A DNA stretch of 45,962 bases, from assembly GCA_001771545.1 (NCBI GenBank), contig MEUC01000026.1, forward strand, positions 1-45,962. Direction: 5' to 3'. Made by a program: the position numbers and the translations under genes. The notes beneath the pieces are model-generated. The model had not been told where the DNA came from, did no database searches, and was given only the letters and a program-made list of their open reading frames with translations. Of this stretch, positions 777 to 35,405 are shown one piece after another. Each line of letters opens with the position of its first letter. The stretch's first letter is position 1. The stretch is from a candidate division WOR-1 bacterium RIFOXYB2_FULL_42_35 (GTDB lineage: Bacteria; Margulisbacteria; WOR-1; O2-12-FULL-45-9).

Positions 777-792
777 TGTTAGAATAGAGCCA
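777..792 (+). promoter_or_regulatory. Extended -10 promoter of gatC, leaderless
   Basis: TG at 777-778 then TAGAAT at 780-785 forms an extended -10. Six bases separate it from the gatC ATG at 792, so the expected transcription start coincides with the start codon. There is no Shine-Dalgarno sequence. Confidence 0.65.
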
Positions 793-1070
793 TGCAAATC
801 GATATAGACCACGTAGCCAAATTAGCCAGACTAGGACTTTCAGAAGAAGAAAAGAAAGTTTTTGGTGAACAGCTAGGCAAAGTACTTGATCATGCCAATG
901 AACTGCAGAAATTAAATACTGATAATGTCTCCCCCACTTCTCATGCTATACCGATGAAAAATGTTTTAAGGGAAGATAAAGTTGTTGTTTGTCAAAACAC
1001 TGAAGATATTCTTGCTAATGGCCCAGAAACTGAAGATAATATGTTTAAAGTCCCTCGGATTGTGGAATGA
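792..1070 (+). CDS. gatC: Asp/Glu-tRNA amidotransferase subunit C
   Basis: GatC is the small clamp subunit of GatCAB, which converts Glu-tRNA(Gln) and Asp-tRNA(Asn) to the amidated forms. The 92-residue length and the pattern DHVAKLARLGLSEEEK near the N-terminus, followed by a mid-region ending in LREDKV, are typical of the family. It overlaps gatA by 4 bp (ATGA), so the two are translationally coupled. The start at 792 is supported by the leaderless promoter. gatB lies apart, at 4100, under its own promoter. Confidence 0.93.
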   Translation: MQIDIDHVAKLARLGLSEEEKKVFGEQLGKVLDHANELQKLNTDNVSPTSHAIPMKNVLREDKVVVCQNTEDILANGPETEDNMFKVPRIVE

Positions 1071-2518
1071 ACAATAAAACCGCCCACGAACTACATAATG
1101 AGCTCAAAAATAAAAAAATCAGCTCTGTTGAATTAACCGAAGCTGTTTTTGCGCAAATTGAGAAGGTCGAGTCTAAGGTTCAAGCATTTGTAACCTTAAC
1201 TAAAGAAGAAGCCTTAAAACAAGCTAAGGCTGCCGATGAACGTATTGAAAATAACCATAACCTTACCCCTTTAACTGGAATCCCTATCGCCATCAAAGAT
1301 AACATGTGCACCAAGGGGATTTTAACTACTTGTTCCTCAAAAATTTTATCTAACTATCTTCCCCCTTACAACGCAACCATAGTGGAAAAGCTAAAAGAAG
1401 CTGGGGCAATAATGGTTGGCAAAACCAATATGGACGAGTTTGCCATGGGCTCCTCAACGGAAAACTCCGGCCTCCACCCTACCAATAATCCTTGGAACCT
1501 CAACACTGTTCCCGGCGGCTCTTCTGGCGGGTCTGCTGCCGCAGTAGCGGCTGACGAATGTATCTTGGCCACAGGCTCTGACACTGGCGGTTCAATCAGG
1601 CAACCAGCAGCTTTTTGCGGTGTGGTGGGCCTGAAACCAACTTACGGACGAGTCTCAAGATACGGCCTAGTTGCCTTTGCCTCCTCCTTGGACCAAATCG
1701 GACCTTTGACTAAAGACGTAACTGATACGGCCACAGTTCTCAACATCATTTCTGGTCACGATCCGAAAGACTCCACTTCTGTTAATATCTCTGTGCCGGA
1801 CTATCAAAAATCACTAATAAACAACATCAAAGGGCTAAAAATTGGTTATATTAAAGAACTGCTAGGCAAAGGCATAGACAAAGAAGTCAAGGTAACGATT
1901 GAAAAGGCCATGAAGAAGTTGGCAGAACTTGGGGCAGAGCTGATTGAAGTCTCAATGCCCAGCTTTGAAGCAGCGGTTGCCACCTACTATCTTATAGCCC
2001 CGGCTGAAGCCAGCTCAAACCTGGCTAGATATGATGGAGTCAAATTTGGCCATCGCAGTAAAGAAGCCAAAGATCTGCTCACCATGTACTATAATACGAG
2101 ACAAGAAGGCTTTGGCACAGAAGTTAAAAGACGGATTCTGCTTGGCACCTATGCCCTCTCTGCCGGCTACTATGATGCCTATTATCTCAAAGCCTTAAAG
2201 GTCAGAACATTAATCAAACAAGACTTTGATAAAGCCTTTGCTGAGTGTGATGTGTTAATTTCTCCCACCGCTCCAACAGTTGCTTTTAAAATTGGTGAAA
2301 AAACCGCTGACCCACTATCTATGTATCTCTCTGACATTGCTACTATTCCAGTCAATCTCGCTGGCCTACCAGGCATCTCTCTCCCTTGCGGCTTTAGCAA
2401 TAACCTGCCCGTGGGCTTACAAATCATTGGCAAGGCTTTTGCTGAAGAAACAATCTTAAGGGTCGCGTTTACCTACGAGCAAAATACTGATTGGCATAAG
2501 AAAAAGCCTCAGCTATAA
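1067..2518 (+). CDS. gatA: Asp/Glu-tRNA amidotransferase subunit A
   Basis: GatA is the amidase subunit of GatCAB: it hydrolyses glutamine and passes ammonia to GatB. The 483-residue protein is full length and shows the amidase-signature Ser-cisSer-Lys triad: Lys77 in GIPIAIKDNM, Ser152 in the GGSSGGS run at 150-156, and Ser176 in SDTGGSIRQP. It overlaps gatC by 4 bp. Together with gltX at 40000 this suggests that Gln-tRNA and probably Asn-tRNA are made by transamidation, although absence of GlnRS cannot be judged from one window. Confidence 0.96.
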   Translation: MNNKTAHELHNELKNKKISSVELTEAVFAQIEKVESKVQAFVTLTKEEALKQAKAADERIENNHNLTPLTGIPIAIKDNMCTKGILTTCSSKILSNYLPPYNATIVEKLKEAGAIMVGKTNMDEFAMGSSTENSGLHPTNNPWNLNTVPGGSSGGSAAAVAADECILATGSDTGGSIRQPAAFCGVVGLKPTYGRVSRYGLVAFASSLDQIGPLTKDVTDTATVLNIISGHDPKDSTSVNISVPDYQKSLINNIKGLKIGYIKELLGKGIDKEVKVTIEKAMKKLAELGAELIEVSMPSFEAAVATYYLIAPAEASSNLARYDGVKFGHRSKEAKDLLTMYYNTRQEGFGTEVKRRILLGTYALSAGYYDAYYLKALKVRTLIKQDFDKAFAECDVLISPTAPTVAFKIGEKTADPLSMYLSDIATIPVNLAGLPGISLPCGFSNNLPVGLQIIGKAFAEETILRVAFTYEQNTDWHKKKPQL

Positions 2519-2528
2519 TAAGGGCATC

Positions 2529-34338: not shown

Positions 34339-35200
34339 AAAAGTTAGCACCGAGAGAACCGCAACAAAGATTGGGGGAACGACCAAGAAAGAAAAGGTTA
34401 CCCCTGCTTCTCCAATTGGTATTTTTGATTCCGGGGTTGGCGGCTTAAGTGTGCTGGCAGAAGTAATGCGACAATTACCGCATGAAGACGTAATTTATCT
34501 GGGGGATACCGCCAGAATTCCTTATGGCAGCCGAACACCCCAAGAGATCGTTAAGATTAACCGGGAAATAATTCCCTTTCTCCTTAAACAGGGCGCCAAG
34601 TTAATTATCATGGCCTGCGGAACATCTTCTGCTATTGCTTACCCGGTAATTAAAGATGAATATCCGGTTGAAATCATTAATTTAATAGAGCCGGGTTCAC
34701 AGGCCGCAGTTACCGCTTCAAGATCAGGAAAGATTGGAGTAATTGCTACATCAGCAACGGTTAATTCGCAAGCTTTTCAGGATAAAATTAGGGAATTGAA
34801 AAAAGAAGCTGTGGTTTCCGCTGTTGGCTGTCCTCTTTTTGTTCCTTTGATCGAGAGAGGCCTGGTAGATAGTGACGAGGCCAAACAAGTTGCCAAAGAC
34901 TACTTAAAACCTTTGCTTGAGAACGGCATTGATGCTTTGATTTTGGGTTGTACCCACTACCCTCACCTAGCCAAGACCATTCAATCTATAGTAGGACCAG
35001 GAGTAAAATTGGTTGATCCCGCAGAAGAGGCTGTGAAACAAACCAGAAAACTGTTGGAAACATCTGGCACCATTAGAAAAGAGTCCGGCCCGCATAAATA
35101 CAATTTTTTTGTGACTGGTTCCACTATCCAATTCCAAGACATTGGCAGTCGGTTGTTAGGCAAGCCCATCGTTGGAACTAAACAAATCTCCTTAACCTAA
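34331..35200 (+). CDS. murI: Glutamate racemase
   Basis: MurI supplies D-glutamate for peptidoglycan. Asp33 lies in IGIFDSGVGGLSVL, the first catalytic Cys96 in IIMACGTSSAIAYP, and the second Cys207 in LGCTHYPHL. The residue after Cys96 is Gly where the family almost always has Asn (CNT). A 26-residue basic extension precedes the usual start (KVSTERTATKIGGTTKKEK); a later start is not offered by any Met before the catalytic core. It is 289 residues, close to normal once the extension is removed. Confidence 0.92.
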   Translation: MIRKVSTERTATKIGGTTKKEKVTPASPIGIFDSGVGGLSVLAEVMRQLPHEDVIYLGDTARIPYGSRTPQEIVKINREIIPFLLKQGAKLIIMACGTSSAIAYPVIKDEYPVEIINLIEPGSQAAVTASRSGKIGVIATSATVNSQAFQDKIRELKKEAVVSAVGCPLFVPLIERGLVDSDEAKQVAKDYLKPLLENGIDALILGCTHYPHLAKTIQSIVGPGVKLVDPAEEAVKQTRKLLETSGTIRKESGPHKYNFFVTGSTIQFQDIGSRLLGKPIVGTKQISLT

Positions 35201-35392
35201 ATTTGTCATAAACCTTCCGCAAACAAAAGACGGGAAAAGGCAAAAAACTAGCTGAAATTGACGAAGCTCTGAGGCTCTTATCTGCTAGACCAGGACATTT
35301 CGGAGGTCAGGTAAAATTGTTGAAGTGCACAATAAACCACACGTTTATCCGAAGCAAACAATAGGCCGGACAGCAACTCAGAGTTCTTGTGC
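35201..35392. other. Intergenic region with a possible gene remnant
   Basis: No complete gene is seen. One plus-strand frame is open from 35212 to a TAG near 35361 and reads like protein (LAEIDEALRLLSARPGHFGG), but it has no start codon or ribosome site. It may be the relic of a lost gene. Confidence 0.2.
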
Positions 35393-35405
35393 TATAATTT
35401 ATTTA
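35391..35405 (+). promoter_or_regulatory. Extended -10 promoter of the TatD-associated radical SAM gene, leaderless
   Basis: TGC-TATAAT (TATAAT 35393-35398) then six bases to ATG 35405. An upstream in-frame TTG at 35387 lies within the promoter itself and cannot be the start if this is right. Confidence 0.75.

What the first reader, a model, noticed from the sequence alone, without database searches (positions are those of the whole stretch)
777..35405. Eight starts lie exactly seven bases after a -10 box: systematic leaderless transcription
gatC (792), gatB (4100), nadD (9605), AAA ATPase (11528), dut (12772), DUF4015 gene (19227, minus), histidine kinase (21836, minus) and TatD-associated radical SAM (35405) each have TATAAT, TATACT or TAGAAT followed by exactly six bases and the start codon, with no Shine-Dalgarno. 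Most have TGn before the box. gltX, cca, the antitoxin-like gene, SppA and the GT-C gene are one to three bases longer. GTG starts take part too. It also corrects starts (dut, radical SAM, DUF4015).
Basis: partly seen in the sequence, partly recalled or inferred. Interest (0 to 1): 0.8.

Follow-up and report, generated by a model that had tools for sequence, protein, structure and literature searches.

The report
Leaderless genes throughout candidate class Saganbacteria
In this bacterium and the 30 relatives of its class examined, many genes carry a promoter-like box directly before the start codon and usually no ribosome-binding site, so their messenger RNAs likely begin at or next to the start codon itself, a known but minority way of starting genes for which our searches found no report in this group.

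Summary
All eight named starts have TATAAT, TATACT or TAGAAT, six bases, then ATG or GTG; six of eight have TGn. It is neither chance nor local. Genome-wide, TGnTATAAT-N6-ATG occurs 25 times against 0 reversed. Across 30 class genomes there are 688 hits at six bases against 107 at five. A motif-blind gene caller shows the same edge, with a tail to about ten bases. Six is the mode in this genome, not a rule: seven is as common in the class sample. Boxed genes seldom have Shine-Dalgarno (7 of 93, against 285 of 498 others), are seldom operon-internal (13 of 85 against 219 of 477), and have a pyrimidine before the start codon (126 of 150 listed sites, against 106 of 261 SD genes). Orthologues often keep the box: DUF4015 in 21 of 30, reversed motif 0. 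Best reading: extended -10 promoters likely start RNA at or within a few bases of the start codon, in about a third of SD-less leading genes. Nearest named relative: Candidatus Saganbacteria. A new member of a known kind. No RNA was measured.

The parts
780..785 (+). -10 box TAGAAT (TGT before it), six bases before gatC ATG 792
   Evidence: GatC by Pfam and NCBIfam
4088..4093 (+). -10 box TATAAT, six bases before gatB ATG 4100
   Evidence: GatB; box at 6-9 in 12 of 28 usable class orthologues
9593..9598 (+). -10 box TATACT (TGC before it), six bases before nadD ATG 9605
   Evidence: cytidylyltransferase-like domain; box at 6-10 in 8 of 27 usable orthologues
11516..11521 (+). -10 box TATAAT (TGG before it, TTGACA upstream), six bases before the AAA_14/DUF4143 ATPase ATG 11528
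12760..12765 (+). -10 box TATAAT (TGC before it), six bases before dut ATG 12772 (not 12691)
   Evidence: start supported by orthologues
19234..19239 (-). -10 box TATAAT (TGC before it), six bases before DUF4015 GTG 19227
   Evidence: extended -10 5-9 bases before a start in 21 of 30 class orthologues
21843..21848 (-). -10 box TATAAT, six bases before histidine kinase GTG 21836
35393..35398 (+). -10 box TATAAT (TGC before it), six bases before TatD-associated radical SAM ATG 35405 (not TTG 35387)
39987..39992 (+). -10 box TATACT, seven bases before gltX ATG 40000
31969..31974 (+). -10-like TAAACT, eight bases before cca ATG 31983
   Evidence: weaker box, not among those counted
31878..31883 (-). 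-10 box TAGAAT with TTGACA 17 bases upstream, eight bases before GTG 31869 of the PMT_2 (GT-C-like) gene
39628..39633 (-). -10 box TATAAT, nine bases before sppA ATG 39618
2514..2519 (+). -10 box TATAAT overlapping the gatA stop, nine bases before TTG 2529 (no NCBIfam or Pfam family found)

Best explanation
Many genes of this Saganbacteria-like genome and its class carry a TGnTATAAT-type box placed so that RNA polymerase would most likely start the transcript on, or within a few bases of, the first base of the start codon, giving leaderless mRNA. Shown by sequence: the enrichment at six to ten bases with a sharp lower edge at six, the TGn, the scarcity of Shine-Dalgarno, the avoidance of operon-internal positions, the pyrimidine before the start codon, and persistence in orthologues. 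Inferred: the box is an extended -10 promoter read by the housekeeping sigma factor, transcription begins about seven bases downstream of it, and ribosomes (probably 70S, as in other leaderless systems) start on the 5'-terminal AUG or GUG. Many operon-internal genes and other leading genes use ordinary Shine-Dalgarno initiation, or signals I did not resolve.
For: Spacing: 25 v 0 reversed; 24 at N6 against 3 at N5 in the listing; 688 at N6 v 107 at N5 over 30 class genomes, own included, with 16 and 30 reversed controls (my sums). The motif-blind caller gives 33 at spacer 6 and 2 at spacer 5 among 591 starts (internal control 2.4 and 0.8); an independent class sample gives 17 and 4 of 521; my blind subset 14 and 2 of 397. 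SD: 7 of 93 v 285 of 498 (own), 6 of 72 v 223 of 449 (class). Operon-internal: 13 of 85 v 219 of 477 (own), 18 of 71 v 236 of 436 (class). Pyrimidine at -1: 126 of the 150 ATG sites listed of 688, from 8 genomes, and 102 of 122 GTG sites, v 106 of 261 SD genes and 94 of 185 other box-less genes (p 2e-18 against SD genes). TGn: 59 of 96 boxes at 6-11 v 6 of 52 at other spacings. Orthologues: dut 7 of 10, gatB 12 of 28 usable, DUF4015 21 of 30 v 0 reversed. Density of TGnTATAAT-N6-ATG: 14.7 per Mb in 31 class genomes v 0.76 per Mb in 36 genomes of other groups.
Against: No transcript 5' end has been mapped. Spacings 7-10 together outnumber 6, so many of these mRNAs could carry 1-4 nt. At spacer 5, where the start codon would lie one base too close, 107 sites still occur (30 in the reversed control), with 75 of 107 pyrimidines at -1 (p 0.009 against spacer 6), so the edge is not absolute. 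About two thirds of SD-less leading genes lack a recognisable box at 6-9 (42 of 131 have one). -35 matches are not clearly enriched (16 of 96 v 5 of 52 with at least 5 of 6 matches). nadD shows a box in only 8 of 27 usable orthologues, one of them inside a repeat, and the scan allowed starts up to 8 codons either side, which favours finding one. TGn boxes are few in gatB (2 of 30, reversed control 1) and nadD (2 of 28) orthologues.
Confidence: 0.9

Rival explanations
1. Short-leader rather than leaderless (overlaps with the best explanation): transcription starts 1-4 bases before the start codon in most of these genes, so the mRNA has a tiny leader and initiation resembles leaderless but is not identical.
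For: Spacers 7-10 together outnumber 6. In the class sample the counts at 6, 7, 8, 9 are 17, 18, 15, 14.
Against: The mode in the own genome and the pyrimidine-purine step fall exactly on the start codon at spacer 6. Polymerase can start 7-9 bases downstream of the box (recalled), so spacers 7-8 may still be leaderless.
Confidence: 0.35
2. The AT-rich hexamer is a translation enhancer or S1-binding, unstructured stretch rather than a promoter, with transcription starting far upstream.
For: Nakagawa 2017 (PMC5397173, passages) warns that AT-rich bias at -20 to -10 may reflect S1 binding as well as leaderless promoters.
Against: The signal is a specific 9-mer with TGn and a sharp distance edge, is rare or absent with the motif reversed (0, 5 against 84, 0 for DUF4015), is avoided inside operons, and the base before the start codon is usually a pyrimidine. 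An enhancer predicts none of these.
Confidence: 0.04
3. The starts are mis-called and translation begins downstream, after an ordinary leader with a Shine-Dalgarno site.
For: Start calling in a draft genome is uncertain; my caller chose other starts for dut and DUF4015.
Against: dut alignments begin at this Met in 9 of 10 family genomes, and the edge at six appears without using any chosen start (raw counts; whole genomes).
Confidence: 0.03
4. Chance in an AT-rich genome, inflated by the reader picking matching starts.
For: The eight were chosen by eye; 0.3 to 3.3 boxes per 591 starts are expected at each spacer.
Against: 688 v 16 reversed-pattern hits over 30 genomes at N6 (controls summed by hand), and 14 v about 1.6 expected in stretches not chosen for hits.
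Confidence: 0.01

Closest known systems
TA-led (leaderless) genes of bacteria, Zheng et al. 2011 (PMC3160421; abstract and the section 'Diverse distribution' read)
   Same: TA-like Pribnow signal about 10 bp upstream of the start codon, mixed with SD-led genes; a TG peak before the box in some low-GC genomes.
   Different: The groups named for their 207 positive genomes of 953 do not include Cyanobacteria (one genome was unclassified). Here it is a candidate class near the Cyanobacteria, sampled at 40-58% GC, with a strong TGn.
-10-motif adjacent to ORFs in Deinococcus-Thermus (PMC12340547; outline, short abstract and one results section read)
   Same: -10 motif mostly 6-7 bp upstream of the ORF, next to a separate RBS class of genes; it corrects annotated starts.
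   Different: There the motif is TANNNT (TACACT commonest) in nearly a third of D. radiodurans genes. Here it is TATAAT-like with TGn, and about 16% of starts pass.
Leaderless-transcription bacteria predicted by GeneMarkS-2, as quoted in StartLink (PMC9581028, passages)
   Same: Leaderless and SD-led genes in one genome; 21.6% of bacterial species in a set with 4,769 bacteria are quoted as predicted users.
   Different: I did not see the species list, so I cannot say whether any Saganbacteria were included; Cyanobacteria are quoted there as a weak-signal group.
Extended -10 promoters (TGnTATAAT; recalled, and mentioned in PMC3160421)
   Same: TGn directly before a TATAAT-like box and no clear -35 enrichment.
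   Different: Here the promoter-like box abuts the start codon.

Membership tests
Bacterial leaderless (TA-led) genes | Pribnow-like box about 10 bp upstream of the start codon, beyond chance | tested here: met
Bacterial leaderless (TA-led) genes | No Shine-Dalgarno sequence at these genes | tested here: met
   SD in 7 of 93 v 285 of 498 (own), 6 of 72 v 223 of 449 (class); SD-like words occur at 17-18% of internal start codons
Bacterial leaderless (TA-led) genes | Genes lead their transcription unit | tested here: met
   13 of 85 operon-internal v 219 of 477; by a strict rule (opposite-strand neighbour or gap over 100) 47 of 85 lead, another 25 have a same-strand gap of 30-100; of 16 box-less gatB orthologues 8 sit right after a gatA-like end, by eye
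Bacterial leaderless (TA-led) genes | Mapped transcript 5' end on the first base of the start codon | not testable with these tools
   No RNA data; a pyrimidine-purine step there is indirect support
Bacterial leaderless (TA-led) genes | Ribosomes initiate on the 5'-terminal AUG/GUG | not testable with these tools
   Needs ribosome profiling or a reporter
Extended -10 promoter | TGn immediately upstream of the -10 box | tested here: met
   59 of 96 v 6 of 52 (own), 49 of 83 v 6 of 36 (class); only 5 of 28 v 2 of 24 in the out-of-class sample
Extended -10 promoter | -35 element dispensable | tested here: inconclusive
   TTGACA with at least 5 of 6 matches: 16 of 96 v 5 of 52 (own), 10 of 83 v 4 of 36 (class); sequence alone cannot show dispensability
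Deinococcus-Thermus -10-motif system | Degenerate TANNNT motif without strong middle positions | tested here: inconclusive
   The profile is strongly TATAAT with TG before it, but it was built from boxes with at most one central mismatch, so it could not have come out degenerate

The most novel reading that the evidence does not exclude
Leaderless expression from -35-poor, extended -10 promoters is the ancestral default for free-standing genes throughout the class (hits in all 31 genomes examined), in a lineage related to Cyanobacteria, and genes switch between leaderless and SD-coupled forms whenever operons break or form, while a few such as the DUF4015 gene have stayed leaderless across the class.
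Probability: 0.55. Interest if true: 0.55.

Novelty: new member of a known kind. Interest (0 to 1): 0.42.

Why it matters
Leaderless initiation is often discussed as an old trait of translation, and Zheng 2011 found it strongest among bacteria in Actinobacteria and Deinococcus-Thermus. A class near the Cyanobacteria in which it is common and retained in orthologues adds a data point to that history. It also matters practically: mechanical longest-ORF starts run through the promoter here. In the over-extended dut, DUF4015 and radical-SAM frames, TGCTATAAT is read as Cys-Tyr-Asn.

Tried and rejected
Sampling: my first set of 20 stretches was chosen partly with known hits in view, so the sharp peak was inflated. 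The second set then under-sampled known hits, and its raw counts show an edge at six and a plateau to about ten rather than a spike. I report both, the blind subset, whole-genome counts and a separate class sample (39 stretches, one of the 40 asked for does not exist).

Class specificity: TGnTATAAT-N6-ATG falls off outside the class (725 hits in 31 genomes against 386 in 43 with 52 reversed controls; 6 genomes at 0). But the looser box signal is just as common among SD-less leading genes there (21 of 59), although TGn is rare (5 of 28). So I rejected 'leaderless only in this class'. What differs is the TGn, and the outside sample is 20 stretches from 10 genomes.

-35 search: no clear enrichment. 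A start site at position 7 after the box for spacers 9-12 showed only a weak A preference. A first comparison of -1 pyrimidines used 38 of 107 N5 sites (58%); all 107 give 70%, which weakens that contrast though not the one with SD genes. gatB and nadD show few TGn boxes.

GC differences between genome groups were not corrected for.
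Full report
The claim checked. Eight starts between 792 and 35405 were said to sit seven bases after a -10 box, with no Shine-Dalgarno sequence. Reading the sequence directly confirms all eight: gatC TAGAAT, nadD TATACT, and TATAAT for gatB, the AAA_14/DUF4143 ATPase, dut, DUF4015, the histidine kinase and the radical SAM gene. Each has exactly six bases before ATG or GTG. TGn precedes six of eight. gltX (7), cca (8), the PMT_2 gene (8 to GTG 31869) and sppA (9) are the longer ones.

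Where it is from. The window is one whole contig of a 1.79 Mb genome in 51 contigs. Its GatB is 70% identical to that of Candidatus Saganbacteria DeMMO3_43 and at most 57% to any other of the 80 loci kept. NCBI places Saganbacteria in the Cyanobacteriota/Melainabacteria group. The placement rests on this one protein and is inferred. The genome behind that record also has 24 hits of the motif against 0 controls.

Is it genome-wide? TGnTATAAT-N6-ATG occurs 25 times against 0 for the reversed pattern. With any spacer from 2 to 14 there are 84 against 5, listed as 2:2, 4:1, 5:3, 6:24, 7:10, 8:9, 9:12, 10:12, 11:4, 12:2, 13:3, 14:2. The jump from five to six is what is expected if transcription cannot start downstream of the start codon. 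The tail shows that six is the mode, not a rule.

A motif-blind test. I wrote a codon-usage gene caller that never looks at upstream motifs and ran it on 41 own-genome pieces (717 kb including the window), 39 pieces of class relatives and 20 pieces from outside the class. A box with at most one central mismatch lies at spacer 5 in 2, spacer 6 in 33 and spacers 7-10 in 12, 15, 19 and 15 of 591 starts. Internal in-frame start codons predict 0.3 to 3.3 per spacer. In the class sample the counts at spacers 5 to 10 are 4, 17, 18, 15, 14 and 9 of 521, so there seven is as common as six. Part of my own-genome sample was picked with hits in view; in the 30 pieces not so picked the counts are 2 at five and 14 at six of 397 starts.

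What these genes share. Only 7 of 93 starts with a box at 6-10 have an SD-like word, against 285 of 498 others (p 7e-21); in the class sample 6 of 72 against 223 of 449. The rate of such words at internal start codons is 17-18%. Boxed starts are seldom inside operons (13 of 85 against 219 of 477; class 18 of 71 against 236 of 436). TGn is present in 59 of 96 boxes at 6-11 against 6 of 52 at other spacings; -35 matches are not clearly enriched. The base before the start codon is a pyrimidine at 126 of the 150 ATG sites listed of 688 (8 genomes, not filtered for open frames) and at 102 of 122 GTG sites, against 106 of 261 SD genes and 94 of 185 other box-less genes of the own sample. At spacer five it is 75 of 107. 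A pyrimidine-purine step is the usual base preference at bacterial transcription starts (recalled).

How much of the genome. With a profile trained on relatives and a 2% false-positive threshold, 42 of 131 SD-less leading genes pass (26 of 86 in the blind pieces), against 2 of 106 SD-led leading genes and 15 of 232 operon-internal genes; the class sample gives 43 of 132, 3 of 65 and 24 of 254. So roughly a third of SD-less leading genes, and about 16% of all starts, are candidates.

Across the class and beyond. All 31 class genomes examined, own included, have 6 to 43 hits of TGnTATAAT-N6-ATG. Summed over 30 of them there are 688 at six bases and 107 at five, with 16 and 30 reversed controls (my sums). 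GTG starts give 122 against 7 (my sum). In 43 genomes of the same phylum outside the class the total is 386 against 52, with six at zero. In 36 genomes reached through other loci (36 of the other 79) it is 98 hits against 29, 0.76 per Mb, against 14.7 per Mb in the class; the highest there is 12. GC was not corrected for. The looser box signal persists outside the class (21 of 59 SD-less leading genes) but with TGn in 5 of 28, so the TGn form, rather than leaderlessness, marks the class.

Orthologues. dut has a box at 6-9 in 7 of 10 family genomes with otherwise diverged upstream DNA; the other three share an upstream sequence that reads like the end of another gene (inferred), two with an SD word. 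gatB has a box at 6-9 in 12 of 28 usable class members; of the 16 others, 8 show by eye a gatA-like end directly upstream. nadD has one at 6-10 in 8 of 27 usable, one of these inside a tandem repeat. DUF4015 carries TGn plus a box 5-9 bases before an in-frame start in 21 of 30 orthologues and 0 of 30 for the reversed motif. So the pattern suggests that free-standing genes tend to be leaderless and operon members SD-coupled.

Mechanism. The sequence evidence fits RNA polymerase with the housekeeping sigma factor binding an extended -10 element, opening the DNA and starting on the A or G of the start codon, or a few bases earlier where the spacer is longer. The mRNA would then begin with AUG or GUG, and initiation would go through the leaderless route. 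Promoter function, start position and ribosome route are inferred; no RNA was measured.

Prior work. Zheng 2011 (PMC3160421, abstract and one section read) describes this kind of signature in 207 of 953 genomes, and a TG peak in several low-GC genomes. The Deinococcus-Thermus study (PMC12340547, one section read) reports the -10 motif about 6-7 bp before ORFs. StartLink (PMC9581028, passages) quotes 21.6% of bacterial species as predicted users. Nakagawa 2017 (PMC5397173, passages) warns that AT-rich bias may also be S1 related. A search for 'leaderless' with 'Margulisbacteria' found 0 papers. Among 44 papers holding two of leaderless/Saganbacteria/WOR-1/Melainabacteria/Sericytochromatia, none of the 25 listed holds 'leaderless'; the other 19 were not shown. 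Only open-licence PMC papers were searched. I therefore file it as a new member of a known kind.

Noticed in passing
window 15126-15552: A tmRNA gene (Rfam 151 bits) whose predicted tag is long (32 residues, ending ALS), close to smpB at 13969-14433 and dut.
   Followed up: no
window 12691-12772, 19227-19371, 35387-35405: In over-extended ORFs the promoter-like TGCTATAAT is read as Cys-Tyr-Asn; 'CYN' shortly before an internal Met/Val could flag wrong starts in this class.
   Followed up: partly
window 36936-36955: An inverted repeat (TGCAGACC-TAAA-GGTCTGCA) just upstream of the weakly DivIC-like gene at 36969, which shows no box at 5-11 and no SD word.
   Followed up: no
window 16690-17082: A 130-residue piece of an SNF2-type helicase (Pfam SNF2-rel_dom), probably a gene fragment.
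   Followed up: no
window 23601-28024: Two neighbouring large proteins, each with an ABC ATPase and an FtsX-like permease match; the FtsX match of the first is below Pfam's cut-off.
   Followed up: no
L229 (gatB orthologue), upstream of the start: A hairpin-like repeat sits shortly before the gatB start instead of a -10 box or SD site.
   Followed up: no
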